A stretch of 64,000 nucleotides of DNA from Cryobacterium sp. Y29 (lineage in GTDB: Bacteria; Actinomycetota; Actinomycetes; Actinomycetales; Microbacteriaceae), in contig NZ_PJJN01000029.1 of assembly GCF_002929825.1 (NCBI RefSeq), forward strand, positions 59,847 through 123,846, written 5' to 3'. The notes below the pieces were generated by a model, which was not told the DNA's origin, made no database searches, and saw only the letters and a program-made list of their open reading frames with translations. Positions 11,697 through 53,966 of this stretch are shown here, in pieces (position 1 is the first letter of the stretch; each line of letters starts with the position of its first letter). The translations under genes and the position numbers were made by a program.

Positions 11697-12740
11697 ATGC
11701 ACACGAGACATTTCGCCGTTCCCGCACTCCTCGCGTCAGCCGCACTCGCCCTCTCGGGATGCTCGGCAGAGACGACCGCGAACGCCGACGGCGCAGCCAG
11801 CGACCTCAAGATCGTCGCCACAACCACCCAGGTCGCCGATTTCACCCGCAACGTGGTCGGCGATGCCGGGGGCGTCGACCTGACCCAACTCATCCAGCCG
11901 AACCAGAGCGCGCACAGCTATGACCCGTCCGCGGCCGACCTGACCGCGCTCGGCGCCGCCGACGTGCTCGTGATCAACGGCGTCGGACTTGAAAAATGGC
12001 TCGATGACGCCATCGCCGCATCCGGCTTTGACGGCGTCACCATCGATGCCGATGAGGGCATCACGATCTCCGAGGTCGGGGCGGACGAGGATCAGACGAA
12101 CGACCAGCACGCCGACGAAGAAGCCGATGCCCACGCCGACGTGGCCGCGGATGAGCATGCCCACGAGGGCGGCGATCCGCACATCTGGACGAACGTGCAG
12201 AACGCGAAGACAATCGTCGCGACGATCGTCGACGGTCTCACCTCCGCCGACGCAGGCAACGCGGTGACTTTCGAATCCAATGCAACGGCGTACACGGCGC
12301 GACTTAATGACCTCGACGAATGGATCCGCACCAACGTCGACACGGTGCCGGAGAGCGAGCGGCTGCTGGTGAGCAACCACGACTCCCTCGGCTACTTCAC
12401 CGCGGCTTACCACATCGATTATGTCGGTTCGGTGATTCCAAGCTTCGACGACAACGCCGAGCCGAGCGCTGCCGAGATCGACTCCCTCGTCGCGGCCATC
12501 ACGGCGACCGGCGTCACGTCCGTCTTCTCCGAGGCATCCCTCAGCCCCAAAACCGCCGAGACGATTGCGACCGAAGCTGGTGTGACCGTCTACTCCGGCG
12601 ATGATGCGCTCTACGTCGACTCGCTTGGTCCGAACGGAAGCGCTGGCGATACCTACATCAAGGCGCAGCTGCACAATGCCACGCTCATGCTCGACTCGTG
12701 GGGAGTCACGCCCTCTGCACTGCCCGCTGACCTGCAATAG
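11697..12740 (+). CDS. zinc ABC transporter substrate-binding lipoprotein (ZnuA-like)
   Basis: This extracellular lipoprotein captures Zn2+ (or Mn2+) for the ABC importer encoded downstream. Residues 1-22 form a signal peptide ending in LSGC, the lipobox. Metal-ligand positions of cluster A-I binding proteins are visible: His in NQSAHSYDPS near 66, His in GGDPHIWTN near 162, and SNHDS near 224. A His/Asp/Glu-rich loop (about residues 130-158) is typical of zinc rather than manganese binders. Length is 347 residues. It is the first gene of an operon under a Zur-type operator. Confidence 0.9.
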   Translation: MHTRHFAVPALLASAALALSGCSAETTANADGAASDLKIVATTTQVADFTRNVVGDAGGVDLTQLIQPNQSAHSYDPSAADLTALGAADVLVINGVGLEKWLDDAIAASGFDGVTIDADEGITISEVGADEDQTNDQHADEEADAHADVAADEHAHEGGDPHIWTNVQNAKTIVATIVDGLTSADAGNAVTFESNATAYTARLNDLDEWIRTNVDTVPESERLLVSNHDSLGYFTAAYHIDYVGSVIPSFDDNAEPSAAEIDSLVAAITATGVTSVFSEASLSPKTAETIATEAGVTVYSGDDALYVDSLGPNGSAGDTYIKAQLHNATLMLDSWGVTPSALPADLQ

Positions 12741-48352: not shown

Positions 48353-49021
48353 TCAGGTTGCGGGAACCTTTCGAGCCAGCACAACCCGGCTGGCATTGAC
48401 GGATGCCGCCGCCTCATTCCACAGACTCGTCACGCCGGTAGCCAGCTCTATTTCCAGGCCGTCCAGGGAACGTACGATGAAAATCACTGCCGCGGCGGTG
48501 TCGCCGGCTTTCTCGAATCCCGCCGCGACCGCGCGCACCCACGTTTCGGCCGCGGACTTCGCCGCCGCATAATTCGCGCCGCCGGTGGAGGGCTGGTCGA
48601 CCGACACGCTCGACACGATCGCGAGCCGCCCGGCCGAAGAGGCCAGCAGATCGGCGTTGAACGCCCGGGTGGTGTTTCGCAGCGTGGTGACCACGTGCGA
48701 GTGCAGAAAAGCCCAGTCTTCGTCGCTCTGGCCGGCCAGGCCGCCGCCGCCGCGCCAGCCGCCGACCAGGTGGATGAGCCCGTCAATGGGCGAGAGCTGA
48801 GCCGCCAAAGCGGTCACAGCGGCAAAATCCGTCAGGTCGCATTCGTAGAGCGCCGCCTCCGGTGCCACGGCCAGCACCGACTGGAGGCGTTTGAGATTAG
48901 AGCCGACGGCGACGACGCGCGCGCCCGCCTCCGCTAGTGAAGCGGCGACGGCCAGACCGGCCGTGCTGGTCGCCCCGGCGATCAGCACGGTGCGGCCAGT
49001 GACGGCCGGACGGGCACCCAT
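48353..49021 (-). CDS. short-chain dehydrogenase/reductase
   Basis: The 222-residue Rossmann protein has the cofactor motif LIAGATSTAGLAVAASL near residues 13-29 (a variant of TGxxxGxG), CDLTDFAAVT near 60, and the active-site YAAAK near 150, with SSVS before it. Its ATG shares one base with the TAA of the DUF6421 gene (TAATG), so the two are probably translated together. Substrate unknown. Confidence 0.85.
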   Translation of the reverse strand: MGARPAVTGRTVLIAGATSTAGLAVAASLAEAGARVVAVGSNLKRLQSVLAVAPEAALYECDLTDFAAVTALAAQLSPIDGLIHLVGGWRGGGGLAGQSDEDWAFLHSHVVTTLRNTTRAFNADLLASSAGRLAIVSSVSVDQPSTGGANYAAAKSAAETWVRAVAAGFEKAGDTAAAVIFIVRSLDGLEIELATGVTSLWNEAAASVNASRVVLARKVPAT

Positions 49022-50427
49022 TAGTCGACCGCGCTGCCGGTGATACCGGCCGTGGACTCGATGACCGTGCGCATCTTCTTCTCGAGCGCCTCGAAGAACA
49101 TCGACAGCGGAAATTCGTCGTCAAGAACCTGGTCGGTGTAGCCCTTGGGCGCCCCGGCGAGCACCTCGAGCGGCAGCCCGCGGGCCCAGGTCGAGGCCGG
49201 ATTCGGCGTGAGGGTCTTCGAGATCATCTCGTAGGCCGCGAGCCAGTGCGCCTTCTTCGGCCGGTCGATCGACGCCCAGTACAGCTCGTCAATCTGCGCT
49301 CCGAGCGCGATGACCACGTCGGGCACGGCCTCCCAGTCGAAGGTGAGCCGGGTGTCGGTCCAGTGCAGCACGCCGTGCTGGTGCATCCAGGCGAACAACA
49401 GCTGACCGCTGAGGCCGTCATAGTTACGCACCCGGTTGCCGGTGATTGCGAACCGAAAGATGCGGTCGAAGATGACCGCGTACTGCACCAGTTTCGCGTG
49501 CCGACGAGCCTCGGGGCTCGCCAGCTCACTGCGCTCGATCGTGACCGATTCGCGAAAAGCGGTCAGGTCGCAGCGTAATTCCTCGAGCGAGTAGAGAAAG
49601 AACGGCATGCGTTGCTTGATCATGAACGGGTCGAACGGCAGATCCCCGCGCATGTGCGTGCGGTCGTGGATGAGGTCCCACATCACGAAGGTTTCTTCAG
49701 TGAGATGCTGGTCGCCCAGTAGTAGGGCCGCATCGGCGGGCAGCTCGAGCCGCGTGATCTCGGCGGCCGCGCGCACGACCCGGCGAAAACGGGCGGCTTC
49801 GCGGTCGGCGAAGATCGCCCCCCAGGTGAACGTGGGAATCTCGCGCATCGCGACCGTCTCGGGAAACAACACGGCCGAGTTGGTGTCGTAGCCAGGGGTG
49901 AAATCGAGAAAACGAATCGGCACGAACAGCTTGTTCGTGTAGCCGGCTTCGAGCTCGCCGATGAATTCCGGCCAGATGACCTCGATCAGCACGGCTTCGA
50001 CCAGGCGATTGGCGCTGCCGTTTTGCGTGTACATCGGGAACACCACGAGGTGACGCAGTCCGTTTACGCGGTGTTGCTGCGGCTGGAAGGCCAGCAGGGA
50101 GTCGTAGAAGTCGGGTACACCGAACCCGTCTGACGTCCAGCGATCGAAGTCCACAACCAGAGCGGCCAGATACGCGGCGTCGTGCGCAAAGTGCGGGGCG
50201 AGGTCGGTGACGGCCATGGTGATGCGCGCAACGGATGCCGCGGCATCCGCGTGCCGGCCCGCGTCGGTAATCGACCCGTCTTGCGACTGCACAGCCTGCA
50301 GCGAGGTCGCCGCTGCCTTGAGGCTGAGCCAGGAGGGGTGTTGCGCGAGGTTGCCGCCGTCTTCGAGAACCTCGGGCTCTCCGACCAGAGCGTTAGCTAC
50401 GTGTGTTTTTTCAACAGATATCGACAT
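49021..50427 (-). CDS. DUF6421 family protein
   Basis: The 468-residue soluble protein contains HLTEETFVMWDLIHDRTHMRGDLPFDPF near residues 224-252, with closely spaced His, Asp and Glu suggestive of a metal site, and FAWMHQHGVLHWTD near 347. From memory, proteins of this length and pattern in Microbacteriaceae are classed as DUF6421. The ATG at 50427 follows GGAGG; earlier in-frame sequence is not protein-like. The one-base overlap with the SDR gene suggests a joint role. Function is unknown. Confidence 0.78.
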   Translation of the reverse strand: MSISVEKTHVANALVGEPEVLEDGGNLAQHPSWLSLKAAATSLQAVQSQDGSITDAGRHADAAASVARITMAVTDLAPHFAHDAAYLAALVVDFDRWTSDGFGVPDFYDSLLAFQPQQHRVNGLRHLVVFPMYTQNGSANRLVEAVLIEVIWPEFIGELEAGYTNKLFVPIRFLDFTPGYDTNSAVLFPETVAMREIPTFTWGAIFADREAARFRRVVRAAAEITRLELPADAALLLGDQHLTEETFVMWDLIHDRTHMRGDLPFDPFMIKQRMPFFLYSLEELRCDLTAFRESVTIERSELASPEARRHAKLVQYAVIFDRIFRFAITGNRVRNYDGLSGQLLFAWMHQHGVLHWTDTRLTFDWEAVPDVVIALGAQIDELYWASIDRPKKAHWLAAYEMISKTLTPNPASTWARGLPLEVLAGAPKGYTDQVLDDEFPLSMFFEALEKKMRTVIESTAGITGSAVD

Positions 50428-50742: not shown

Positions 50743-52419
50743 ATGACTACACGTAGGGAAGTACTGCAGTTGGGCGCAGTGGGCGCCGTCGGTGCGATGA
50801 GCGCCGTCGGCATGGCGAAGATGGCAGACCCGGTCCCTGGCGTGCTGGCGCCAGCAAATACTCCGGTCCCGTATCGGGGTGTATTCCGTCGCCCGCCCGA
50901 GCTGGTGCCGTACGCCACGGGCTTCGATGAGGGTGACCCGGCTCGGCCATTCGCCAAATTCGCCCTCACTGAGAAGGTAGGACAGGCCCAGATCCTTCCG
51001 GGGCTCTCCACCACCTTGGCAGGGTACAACGGAGTTTTTCCCGGCCCGACCATTCGAGTGCGGCAGGGAACCCGATCCGAGATACGCATCCGCAACGCTT
51101 TGCCGGCTACGGGGCTCCTACACCCGGCGGCGTTCAACACCGTCACCCACCTGCACGGCTCAGCGTCGTTGCCCCAGTACGACGGCTATGCCAACGACTT
51201 CACTGCTCCGGGCAAAGTCAAGAACTACCAGTACCCCAACTGGCAGTCCGCGCGCACGCTCTGGTACCACGACCACGACCACCTGGTCACGAGCCAGAAC
51301 GTGTATTCCGGGCTCGCGGGTTTCTACCCGATGTCGGACCAGTACGAGCAGGCGCAGCTGCCTCAGGGCGAGTTCGACGTGCCGCTGATGATTTCGGACG
51401 CAACGTTCAATGCCGACGGCTCTTTAGGATTCAACGACAATGGCCACGCGGGTTTGTGGGGTGACGTGATCATGGTCAATGGGGTGCCGTGGCCGACAAT
51501 GAAGGTCAAGCCGCGCATCTATCGCTTCCGCGTGCTCGTGGCCTCGATCACACGCTCCTATCGACCCACACTGTCCACCGGTGACCCGTTCTACATCGTC
51601 GGCACAGACGGCGGCATGACGCCCAAGGTGGAAACGGTGCGGTCCTGGCGGCAGGGCACGGCGGAGCGCTACGAGATCCTGATCGACTTTCGCAAGTACA
51701 AGGTCGGCCAGATGATCGAGATGCGCAATCTGAGTAACAAGAACAACGTCAACTTCGCCAACACGGACAAGATCATGCGGTTCCAGGTGGTGGCCGACTC
51801 AGGTTCCACGGCCGGATCGATCTCCGCCATCCCGACCACTCTCGACGACGGCGGCTCGCCAAACCCCGAGCTCGGCGGCCTTGACGTGATGAAGCTGACC
51901 CCGGACATGGCGGTGGCGAAGCGGATACTTCGGGTGAAGCGCCAGAACGGAGAGTGGACAGTCAACGATGAGACCTGGGAGGACGTGGAGGCCTCCGGGT
52001 TCTCCCGGTGCTTTGCCAGCACTCAGCCATACTCCGTTGAGCAGTGGACCATCACTAACGAGTCTGGAGGTTGGTTTCACCCACTACACATTCACCTGAT
52101 CGACGGCAAGATCATTGCCCGAAACACCAACGGCGGCAAGCCGTTCCCTTGGGAAGGTGGGCCGAAAGACGTCTTCTACGCGGGAGAGAACGAATCCGTA
52201 ACCGTGCTGATGCAGTTCAACACCGGTGCGCACACTGGCGGGCGGTACATGGTGCACTGCCACAACCTGGTGCACGAAGATCACGACATGATGGTGCAGT
52301 TCTCGGTGGGCGACTGGCGAAACAACGACCCGGTCAGCTCGGACTATCCGGTCGTGGACACCACCCCCATGACTTCGTATCCGCCGGTGTACCGGCCGGG
52401 GTTTGCAGCGGGAACCTGA
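50743..52419 (+). CDS. Tat-exported multicopper oxidase (CotA/bilirubin-oxidase-like)
   Basis: The enzyme oxidises phenols, bilirubin-like compounds or metal ions using O2. The 558-residue protein starts with a twin-arginine signal (TTRREVLQLGAVGAVGAMSAVG). Copper ligands are HLHG near residue 134, WYHDHDH near 175, HPLHIHL near 446 and HCHNLVHEDHDMM near 504-516, including the type 1 Cys and likely axial Met. The ATG at 50743 has GGAG seven bases upstream and places the RR motif correctly. It is followed one base later by a lipoprotein gene. Confidence 0.92.
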   Translation: MTTRREVLQLGAVGAVGAMSAVGMAKMADPVPGVLAPANTPVPYRGVFRRPPELVPYATGFDEGDPARPFAKFALTEKVGQAQILPGLSTTLAGYNGVFPGPTIRVRQGTRSEIRIRNALPATGLLHPAAFNTVTHLHGSASLPQYDGYANDFTAPGKVKNYQYPNWQSARTLWYHDHDHLVTSQNVYSGLAGFYPMSDQYEQAQLPQGEFDVPLMISDATFNADGSLGFNDNGHAGLWGDVIMVNGVPWPTMKVKPRIYRFRVLVASITRSYRPTLSTGDPFYIVGTDGGMTPKVETVRSWRQGTAERYEILIDFRKYKVGQMIEMRNLSNKNNVNFANTDKIMRFQVVADSGSTAGSISAIPTTLDDGGSPNPELGGLDVMKLTPDMAVAKRILRVKRQNGEWTVNDETWEDVEASGFSRCFASTQPYSVEQWTITNESGGWFHPLHIHLIDGKIIARNTNGGKPFPWEGGPKDVFYAGENESVTVLMQFNTGAHTGGRYMVHCHNLVHEDHDMMVQFSVGDWRNNDPVSSDYPVVDTTPMTSYPPVYRPGFAAGT

Positions 52420-52420
52420 G

Positions 52421-53290
52421 ATGAACAGCGCCACCAGAATGGTCACGGCGGTACTCATCGCGTTCGCACTGAGCGGATGCACCGCCGTGGCTACGCCCCT
52501 GGCCGGCACTCCCGTCTCGACCGGATTGGTCGGCTCCGCTGAGAGGGGTACCGATGCGGGCAACGACCGACCTATCGTGACCTACGACGGGCTGATGGTT
52601 CGACGTCGGGTAGTGATCGCAATCCACTCGACTCCCGACGCCGATGTGACCGCGCTCCGCGCGGTGCTGGACAAAGCGGCGGACCAGAGCCAGGCGAACC
52701 TGTCGGATATCTCCCCGGACGTGCTCGACCCCGCCTCGCTCGAGCACTTCGTGCCGGAGTTGATCGTGGTTCTGCCGGCGGGGGGTACCGTTGCCGAAGC
52801 TGGGGAACTGGTCGATCGTGCCTACTTCCAAGACCCAGCGGTTTCCGGGGTGGACCACTACCACGTCGCCGAGGTCCTGGTGCACGATCTTCGGTTCGCG
52901 GTTCGAACGACCAGCCCTGCCGCACTGGAGGAGGCCATTGCCAGGGAGGGCATCTTGTCGGACGCGCTCGGCAATTACTCAACCACCCTGCGCACCGGTG
53001 AGTTCGACGTTACCTACACCGGCCCGCTGCTGAGCGATGAACTGATAAATTCGGTGCAAAACGGCATGGCACGCGCGGCGCACACCAAGCCGGAAGCAGT
53101 CACCGTTTCCTCCCGCTCGACTGCCGGGGTTGGCGTGGACATGGCAAACGAGCCGGCACCTTCGCCCGGAGCCACCGAAGGTCCTTCGGATCATAGCCAC
53201 GACGCCGCGGATGATGACGTGCACGATGACGTGCACGACCCCGCGCACGACATCAACGACGCTCCGGATGACAGCGACGGAGGACGGTAG
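52421..53290 (+). CDS. lipoprotein with His/Asp-rich C-terminal tail
   Basis: The 289-residue product has a lipoprotein signal ending in LSGC (Cys at about residue 19). Its mature part is mixed alpha/beta with no family I recognise. The last 40 residues are rich in His and Asp (SDHSHDAADDDVHDDVHDP), a likely metal-binding tail. It starts one base after the multicopper oxidase stop, so the two are probably an operon acting outside the membrane. A copper- or manganese-supplying role is inference. Confidence 0.75.
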   Translation: MNSATRMVTAVLIAFALSGCTAVATPLAGTPVSTGLVGSAERGTDAGNDRPIVTYDGLMVRRRVVIAIHSTPDADVTALRAVLDKAADQSQANLSDISPDVLDPASLEHFVPELIVVLPAGGTVAEAGELVDRAYFQDPAVSGVDHYHVAEVLVHDLRFAVRTTSPAALEEAIAREGILSDALGNYSTTLRTGEFDVTYTGPLLSDELINSVQNGMARAAHTKPEAVTVSSRSTAGVGVDMANEPAPSPGATEGPSDHSHDAADDDVHDDVHDPAHDINDAPDDSDGGR

Positions 53291-53525
53291 TGGCGGCTCT
53301 GGCAACGGAAGCGGACGCAACGTCGCCTAGTGTCGGTTAACGCCGAAATGCACCAGAGCGGGCTATCGACTCAGACGAGGCGGTAGCTCGTTCTGCGTTC
53401 CGGCTTGGGGCGCGCTGTCCCGCGCGGGGTTTACAGAACTCCCACATAGACAATCGCCTTCCCGACTGGACAGACCATTGTGAATGCCCACGCTCGGATG
53501 GCCGCTCGGATGGCCGCTTGGACGT

Positions 53526-53966
53526 TCAGGAACCGGAGAGCACGACGCCGCTGGTGACGTGCACTGGAATCTTTTCCAATGGCGAGGGCGCGGGGCCATC
53601 GAGTACTTCGCCGGTGGCCGTGTTGAAGCGTGACTGATGGCACGGGCAATCGAATTCGCCCTTCCCGGGTTTGACGACACAGCCCTGGTGCGTGCAGATG
53701 GCGCTAAAGGCAATGACGCTGCCCTCTTTCGGCTGGGAAACCAGGATCGGTTTCCCATCCAGGGTGGCTGAAATGGAGCCGCCGACCGGGATATCGGCAA
53801 GTTTGGCGACCTCTTGGGGCGCACTCCCGCCCGCGGGCGTCGCCGTCGGGCTGCCAGCATCCACTCCGGCGGAGGCGTCGGTCGAGCAACCGGCAAGCGC
53901 AGCAGCGGTACCCGCGCTTCCGATCAAAATAACGGCGCGGCGGGAGAGATCGGTGGCCGGTGTCAT
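53526..53966 (-). CDS. Rieske [2Fe-2S] lipoprotein
   Basis: The 146-residue protein carries the Rieske motifs CTHQGC near residues 90-95 and CPCHQSRF near 107-114 (C-x-H and C-x2-H cluster ligands). The N-terminus SRRAVILIGSAGTAAALAGC combines a twin-arginine with a lipobox Cys near 26, so the folded cluster protein is probably exported by Tat and lipid-anchored. GAGGA lies before the ATG at 53966. The Ser/Thr/Pro-rich stretch after the Cys is a linker. It is convergent with the oxidase-lipoprotein pair; electron-transfer partner unknown. Confidence 0.9.
   Translation of the reverse strand: MTPATDLSRRAVILIGSAGTAAALAGCSTDASAGVDAGSPTATPAGGSAPQEVAKLADIPVGGSISATLDGKPILVSQPKEGSVIAFSAICTHQGCVVKPGKGEFDCPCHQSRFNTATGEVLDGPAPSPLEKIPVHVTSGVVLSGS

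What the first reader, a model, noticed from the sequence alone, without database searches (positions are those of the whole stretch)
50743..53966. Exported oxidase, metal-tailed lipoprotein and Rieske lipoprotein side by side
A Tat-exported multicopper oxidase is followed one base later by a lipoprotein ending in a His/Asp-rich tail. A Tat-type Rieske lipoprotein converges on them. Together they could form an extracellular redox unit for copper or manganese, with the lipoprotein as metal store.
Basis: inference. Interest (0 to 1): 0.5.

Follow-up and report, generated by a model that had tools for sequence, protein, structure and literature searches.

The report
Copper oxidase with obligate lipoprotein partner
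In glacier and soil bacteria an exported copper enzyme is inherited together with a new kind of membrane-anchored partner protein and with a large secreted heme peroxidase, a set that looks like an unrecognised machine for oxidising manganese (or phenols) outside the cell; the iron-sulfur protein next door is mostly a bystander.

Summary
In detail: an intact Tat-type multicopper oxidase (MCO, bilirubin-oxidase/CotA kind), one base later a lipoprotein (LIPO) with an Asp/His tail, then a convergent Tat-type Rieske lipoprotein. MCO and LIPO are a real unit: LIPO, which matches no Pfam or NCBIfam family, directly follows such an MCO in 21 of 22 Cryobacterium copies, 12 of 12 named Arthrobacter/Pseudarthrobacter loci and once in a third family. 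The Rieske gene accompanies them in only 5 of 21 Cryobacterium genomes (broken in a sixth). The long tail is variable; what recurs is a short His motif (HxH in 24 of 33). The better third partner lies elsewhere in this genome: an RTX heme peroxidase of MopA-like architecture, present in 21 of 21 Cryobacterium and 35 of 35 Arthrobacter-type genomes with LIPO; in 12 of the 21 it is MCO-LIPO's neighbour, beside a two-component system. MCOs and MopA-type peroxidases are the two known classes of bacterial Mn(II) oxidase, so I propose extracellular Mn(II) oxidation, with LIPO as membrane-anchored accessory subunit. Linkage and co-inheritance are shown; activity and LIPO's role are inferred. Phenol oxidation is a strong rival.

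The parts
50743..52419 (+). Tat-type multicopper oxidase (bilirubin oxidase/CotA kind), 558 aa; copper ligands H136, H138, H176, H178, H446, H449, H451, H505, C506, H507, H511, M516
52421..53290 (+). Lipoprotein LIPO, 289 aa; lipobox C20; predicted core of two ferredoxin-like halves (about residues 56-231)
53156..53287 (+). Asp/His-rich tail of LIPO (residues 246-289), variable among homologues
53192..53200 (+). HxH motif (H258-S-H260) at the start of the tail; HxH somewhere in the tail in 24 of 33 homologues, at least one His in 33 of 33
53526..53966 (-). Rieske Tat-lipoprotein, convergent neighbour; judged not part of the unit

Best explanation
MCO and LIPO are one functional unit, an exported laccase/bilirubin-oxidase-type multicopper oxidase and its dedicated lipid-anchored accessory protein, and they belong to a larger extracellular oxidation system whose other enzyme is a secreted RTX heme peroxidase of MopA-like architecture (in this genome at G000:C32, with a histidine kinase, a LuxR-type response regulator and a BTAD regulator). 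Most likely the system oxidises Mn(II) to Mn(III/IV) at the cell surface: the MCO takes electrons from Mn(II) and passes them to O2, the peroxidase works on Mn(II) in parallel or on the Mn(III) or radical intermediates, and LIPO holds the MCO at the membrane and presents or loads metal (Cu for the enzyme, or Mn as substrate) through its conserved core and C-terminal His motif. Shown here: the pair, its conservation, the co-inheritance with the peroxidase, intact copper and heme motifs. Inferred: joint function, Mn(II) as substrate, LIPO's role.
For: LIPO follows the MCO at +1 or -1 nt in most loci; MCO neighbour in 21 of 22 Cryobacterium copies, 12 of 12 named Arthrobacter/Pseudarthrobacter loci, 30 of 30 Arthrobacter-type loci examined out of 37 full copies, and a distant pair overlapping by 4 nt in G367 of a third family. 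In 198 Arthrobacter-type genomes the set with LIPO (35) equals the set with an MCO of at least 69% identity over most of its length (35). MCO and LIPO distances correlate, r 0.81 over 34 pairs; 0.77 in Cryobacterium after removing species distance. Peroxidase: 22 of 57 Cryobacterium genomes, namely all 21 with LIPO plus G317, which holds a decayed MCO at that locus; 35 of 35 LIPO genomes against 61 of 198 overall; 12 of 12 named genomes incl. Arthrobacter globiformis NBRC 12137; G367 too. On a five-protein tree of 57 genomes LIPO presence changes at least 6 times and in 7 independent pairs differing in peroxidase LIPO goes the same way 6 times, never the opposite way, p 0.031. In 7 of 21 genomes LIPO lies away from the peroxidase (other contig or over 100 kb), including this one. 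Own peroxidase: An_peroxidase 224.5 bits plus RTX, fn3, Big_5, 1836 aa. MCOs and MopA-type animal heme peroxidases are the two enzyme classes for direct bacterial Mn(II) oxidation (PMC6247904, passages); Pseudomonas putida GB-1 has both classes under a two-component system (PMC11409713, passages); BoxA of Arthrobacter sp. QXT-31 is tabulated among characterised Mn oxidases (PMC12896264, passages); A. globiformis is named as Mn oxidiser (PMC10252929, passage).
Against: No activity data; CotA-type MCOs and RTX peroxidases oxidise many substrates. Co-loss of peroxidase and LIPO is partly explained by physical linkage where they are neighbours. In the genus of G354 26 of 61 peroxidase genomes lack LIPO and 9 lack any MCO at E <= 1e-60, so the peroxidase does not need the pair; two MCO genomes (G662, G761) lack the peroxidase. 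The MCO is interrupted in two near relatives: G329 (frameshift; its only pair) and G330 (in-frame TAG; a second, intact pair exists), draft assemblies. Five genomes keep an MCO without intact LIPO at the peroxidase locus, though each has MCO-LIPO elsewhere. The Fisher tests are not corrected for relatedness.
Confidence: 0.45

Rival explanations
1. The same MCO-LIPO plus peroxidase set oxidises phenolic compounds (lignin or humic fragments, pigments) or cross-links tyrosines/phenols in the cell's own matrix; LIPO anchors the laccase at the surface.
For: Closest solved relatives are bilirubin oxidase and CotA laccase; the peroxidase is of the animal-peroxidase superfamily, closest by sequence to lactoperoxidase-type chains and peroxinectin, and carries fn3, Big_5 and RTX modules; NCBIfam scores for o-aminophenol oxidase PhsA are above background (172 bits) though far below its cut-off of 950.
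Against: No biosynthetic or aromatic-degradation genes recur with the pair in the fetched neighbourhoods (judged from family labels, no full annotation); the pairing of exactly the two Mn(II)-oxidase classes is left as coincidence.
Confidence: 0.3
2. Copper defence: the MCO is a cuprous oxidase and LIPO's His/Asp tail is a copper sink.
For: The MCO scores 197.5 bits to the CueO model; HxH motifs suit copper; on an Arthrobacter plasmid a 52%-identical MCO of the other class lies near a heavy-metal P-type ATPase.
Against: CueO cut-off is 525, not met; no copper transport or CopZ/CsoR-type gene recognised near the pair (by family labels); the tail is not conserved; the presence pattern follows a heme peroxidase, not copper genes.
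Confidence: 0.12
3. A three-gene redox unit with the Rieske lipoprotein as electron carrier.
For: All three are exported, and the Rieske gene is beside the pair in G000, G329, G330, G303, G346.
Against: Not beside LIPO in 15 of 21 genomes and broken in one more; the Rieske gene belongs to a widespread genus family (other copies 50-68% identical) that also occurs in genomes without MCO-LIPO at a locus with unrelated neighbours; it is convergent, so not co-transcribed.
Confidence: 0.04

Closest known systems
Bilirubin oxidase / CotA-type laccases (MCO)
   Same: Fold family, copper-ligand pattern, best sequence matches
   Different: Tat-exported actinobacterial enzyme, always with LIPO in this clade; substrate unknown
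BoxA of Arthrobacter sp. QXT-31 (ANG58850.1), listed as characterised Mn oxidase (PMC12896264, passages)
   Same: Same broad host group; recalled, not from a call, to be bilirubin-oxidase-like
   Different: Sequence not held, so identity, neighbours and the presence of a LIPO partner are unknown
MopA-type long peroxicins (Erythrobacter, Aurantimonas, Roseobacter, P. putida GB-1)
   Same: Peroxidase domain plus RTX calcium-binding repeats, 1836 aa in this genome (PMC6247904 and PMC4420034, passages)
   Different: Actinobacterial, with fn3 and Big_5 modules; phylogenetic place not tested; no activity known
Mnx complex MnxEFG of Bacillus (PMC5622069, passages)
   Same: An MCO that needs small co-encoded accessory proteins that bind copper
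   Different: MnxE/MnxF are about 12 kDa; LIPO is a 30-kDa-class lipoprotein; no sequence comparison was made
P. putida GB-1 MnxG/McoA/MopA with MnxS1/S2/MnxR (PMC11409713, passages)
   Same: Both enzyme classes plus a two-component system in one organism
   Different: Here 12 of 21 Cryobacterium genomes have peroxidase, MCO and LIPO as direct neighbours with kinase and regulator beside them

Membership tests
Multicopper oxidase, bilirubin oxidase/CotA kind | Complete set of copper ligands (HxH, HxH, HxxHxH, HCH...H....M) | tested here: met
   12 of 12 in the window protein; 67 of 71 aligned MCO rows, the other 4 being the interrupted genes of G329 and G330, each present twice
Multicopper oxidase, bilirubin oxidase/CotA kind | Best sequence match to bilirubin oxidase/CotA structures | tested here: met
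CueO (copper efflux oxidase) | NCBIfam PRK10965 equivalog cut-off 525 bits | tested here: not met
   197.5 bits
Mn(II)-oxidising MCO (BoxA, CotA, MnxG) | Mn(II) oxidase activity | not testable with these tools
   needs the protein
Mn(II)-oxidising MCO (BoxA) | Orthology with BoxA ANG58850.1 | not tested
   sequence and the 2017 paper not held
MopA-type long peroxicin (peroxidase in G000:C32) | Animal heme peroxidase domain plus hemolysin-type calcium-binding repeats in a long ORF | tested here: met
   An_peroxidase 224.5 bits, HemolysinCabind 58.2 bits, 1836 aa
MopA-type long peroxicin (peroxidase in G000:C32) | Mn(II) oxidation; phylogenetic placement with MopA | not tested
   no MopA sequence compared
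Known lipoprotein or domain families (LIPO) | Match to a Pfam or NCBIfam family over its cut-off | tested here: not met
   no Pfam family at E 0.1; best NCBIfam 12.6 bits against a cut-off of 50
ACT-like / ferredoxin-like folds (LIPO) | Convincing structural match over the whole model | tested here: inconclusive
   model pLDDT 86.8, pTM 0.80; Foldseek best E 5.9e-5 but TMq 0.28; VIA-align best Z 6.8, range where chance arrangements are common
Rieske [2Fe-2S] protein | Pfam Rieske over cut-off and CxH/CxxH ligands | tested here: met
   59 bits; motif

The most novel reading that the evidence does not exclude
An actinobacterial Mn(II)-oxidation system that unites both known classes of bacterial Mn oxidase (a CotA-like multicopper oxidase and a MopA-like RTX heme peroxidase) in one co-inherited, in many genomes contiguous, locus with its own two-component system, and whose copper oxidase depends on a previously undescribed family of lipid-anchored accessory proteins, the membrane counterpart in function of MnxE/MnxF.
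Probability: 0.33. Interest if true: 0.75.

Novelty: new variant of a known kind. Interest (0 to 1): 0.5.

Why it matters
Why bacteria oxidise Mn(II), and with which proteins outside Bacillus, Pseudomonas and a few alphaproteobacteria, is unsettled. A strictly nested triad (MCO, its lipoprotein, heme peroxidase) in cultivable Cryobacterium and Arthrobacter gives named genes to delete and a marker for predicting such oxidation from genomes. It also defines an accessory-protein family for a laccase-type enzyme that otherwise works alone in most described cases, which matters for producing such enzymes.

Tried and rejected
Rieske as third member: rejected by linkage; the widespread copies sit at another locus (7 of the 25 fetched loci L041-L065 looked at; neighbours named by eye).

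Tail as conserved metal store: rejected; four or more tail His only in the window, L098, L100, L105, L108 and L162 of 33 homologues. A2 holds 33 of the 34 LIPO sequences then at hand (L103 of G346 was left out).

Weak LIPO hits: E 2.7e-4 in G323 and G150, 7.4e-4 in G114, 2.9e-4 in G540, ten Arthrobacter-type hits near E 5e-4 to 1e-3 and a fragment in G906 were not counted as LIPO; G323, G150, G114 and G540 also lack the peroxidase. A 72% MCO fragment in G893 was not counted in the set of 35.

Fold search gave no functional lead; absence of a better match is not evidence of a new fold. Solved-structure search with LIPO: none up to E 10. LIPO on plasmids: no match in 72,556 records. PHROGs and PADLOC were not searched.

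Motif counting: a first, too strict pattern for copper ligands matched 3 of 34 and was replaced by an alignment-based count (rows under 300 aa dropped, genomes present twice through two collections, and the 55% MCO class included). The count of the proximal heme motif (38 of 38 ORFs) is on ORFs picked by the distal motif, so only the proximal one is a result.

Gene calls in neighbours come from my own simple codon-bias caller; start codons are approximate (it put the window MCO start at 50779 and L154's LIPO start too far in).

Literature (7 searches with results): no listed title or abstract start describes this lipoprotein or the triad; no paper in the library holds both 'Cryobacterium' and 'manganese oxid'. 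That is absence from this open-licence library only. All papers were seen as listings or passages, none in full. PMC4861733 (passages) looked for mnxG and cumA in three isolates including an Arthrobacter, and reports a negative Mn culture screen; whether that Arthrobacter has the triad is unknown.
Full report
What is there. The first product is an intact multicopper oxidase of the bilirubin oxidase/CotA kind with a twin-arginine start. The second, 289 aa with a lipobox, has no Pfam, NCBIfam or solved-structure match. The third is a Rieske Tat-lipoprotein on the other strand. Titles of matching records show that the genus is Cryobacterium.

MCO and LIPO are a unit. In the 57 held genomes of the genus, 22 have a LIPO match; 21 are real (G323 is a 40-residue weak hit) and hold 22 full copies, since G330 has two. 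In 21 of these 22 the MCO is the gene directly upstream, with +1 or -1 nt between stop and start where both genes are intact and the start is well called; the exception is the metagenome-assembled G338, where LIPO lies beside the peroxidase and an MCO is on another contig. A scan of one genome per species found 33 loci, 12 of them in Arthrobacter or Pseudarthrobacter, all 12 with the MCO upstream. In 198 Arthrobacter-type genomes (genus of G354) 35 have LIPO at E below 1e-80 (37 copies); in the 30 copies examined the MCO stop lies 1-16 nt before the first matched base; and the same 35 genomes are those with an MCO of 69% identity or more over most of its length. A distant pair in G367, of a third family, overlaps by 4 nt and ends in HGH. 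MCO and LIPO distances correlate (r 0.81, 34 pairs, 0 of 2000 permutations as high); in Cryobacterium r is 0.79 against 0.33 and 0.31 with species distance, which fits transfer as a unit.

The pair has moved. In the window's type of locus it lies between DUF6421/SDR genes and an amidohydrolase (window, L098, L100, L101, L103, L105, L108); in G141 it is elsewhere (L110), and in G311 it sits beside the peroxidase (L107). In the other type of locus the order is peroxidase, MCO, LIPO, then convergent histidine kinase and response regulator, often a BTAD regulator: 12 of 21 genomes have peroxidase and MCO-LIPO as neighbours, kinase and regulator being within the fetched stretch in all 12. In the window's genome and in G329 that locus still exists with peroxidase, kinase, regulators, but about 320 nt instead of MCO and LIPO. 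G303, G346, G324, G322 and G141 keep an MCO there without intact LIPO and carry MCO-LIPO elsewhere.

The peroxidase is the co-inherited partner. PF03098 is found in 22 of 57 Cryobacterium genomes: the 21 with LIPO and G317, which has MCO remnants at that locus. On a quick tree of five proteins of the qcr region (labels recalled) LIPO needs at least 6 changes and the peroxidase 7; of 7 independent pairs that differ in the peroxidase, 6 differ in LIPO the same way, none the other way, p 0.031 (G338 has a long branch). Linkage contributes to this, but in 7 of the 21 genomes the two are on other contigs or over 100 kb apart. In the Arthrobacter-type sample 61 of 198 have the peroxidase, including 35 of 35 with LIPO; of 54 with any MCO of this family at E 1e-60 or better, 52 have it, 2 do not, and 9 peroxidase genomes have no such MCO (Fisher 1.3e-22 and 1.0e-35, not corrected for relatedness). 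All 12 named Arthrobacter/Pseudarthrobacter genomes have it (these may be the same genomes as some unnamed ones), as does G367. The window genome's own peroxidase has an animal heme peroxidase domain, RTX repeats, fn3 and Big_5 domains, the architecture described for MopA-type long peroxicins (PMC6247904, PMC4420034, passages).

The Rieske gene. An intact close homologue (84-94%) is next to LIPO in G329, G330, G303, G346 besides G000; in G311 it is in two pieces; in the other 15 LIPO genomes it is not there. Other Rieske lipoproteins of the same family, 50-68% identical, are spread through the genus, with or without LIPO, at a locus with unrelated neighbours.

The tail. Among 33 homologues the last segment after the conserved E-P contains at least one His in 33 and HxH in 24. 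The long Asp-rich extension is found in the window's relatives and again in Arthrobacter sp. SW1 (L162); several Cryobacterium copies have a predicted membrane-spanning segment instead (read by eye). A short His motif near the membrane, rather than a store, is what evolution keeps.

LIPO structure. AlphaFold2 on 33 sequences gives pLDDT 86.8 and pTM 0.80 with two alpha/beta halves; matches are to designed ferredoxin folds and ACT-type regulatory domains with low overall TM and Z up to 6.8: a common fold, no functional hint.

Function. Multicopper oxidases and MopA-type peroxidases are the two enzyme classes for direct bacterial Mn(II) oxidation (PMC6247904, passages). Pseudomonas putida GB-1 has both, under a two-component system (PMC11409713, PMC11930936, passages). 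An Arthrobacter MCO, BoxA, is tabulated among characterised Mn oxidases (PMC12896264, passages); Arthrobacter strains are reported as Mn oxidisers (PMC10252929, PMC8533519, passages), and A. globiformis NBRC 12137 has the full set (strain-level Mn oxidation not checked). The Mnx complex shows that an MCO may need copper-binding accessory proteins (PMC5622069, passages). Together this makes Mn(II) oxidation the best single guess, not a demonstrated one. Against it: no activity data, the broad substrate range of both enzyme classes, BoxA not compared, and interrupted MCO genes in G329 and G330.

Verdict. The pair with its peroxidase partner is a new variant of known oxidase systems with an undescribed accessory protein family.

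Noticed in passing
L096 (G000:C16), L127, L129, L132, L133: Other MCOs (about 55% identical to the window's) are followed, with about 20 nt overlap, by a signal peptidase I (Peptidase_S26) gene; in the window's genome two such MCO-peptidase pairs lie a few kb apart. A dedicated signal peptidase for a copper oxidase would be unusual.
   Followed up: partly
L107, L102, L104, L096, L149-L151: An exported protein with fn3 and Big_5 domains recurs near these MCOs in both Cryobacterium and Arthrobacter; its function is unknown.
   Followed up: partly
L100 (G329), L098 (G330): The MCO of the window's type is frameshifted in G329 and has an in-frame TAG in G330, both draft assemblies; decay or sequencing error.
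   Followed up: partly
L169 (G000:C32) 12191-12512: The peroxidase locus of the window's own genome has lost MCO and LIPO between peroxidase and kinase; G329 shows the same.
   Followed up: yes
L276 (Arthrobacter sp. FW305-BF8 plasmid): A 52%-identical MCO with two further multicopper-oxidase genes near a heavy-metal P-type ATPase and an ArsR-family regulator on a plasmid from Oak Ridge groundwater.
   Followed up: no
window 49021-50427: DUF6421 protein (804 bits) beside the pair in the window's type of locus; function unknown.
   Followed up: no
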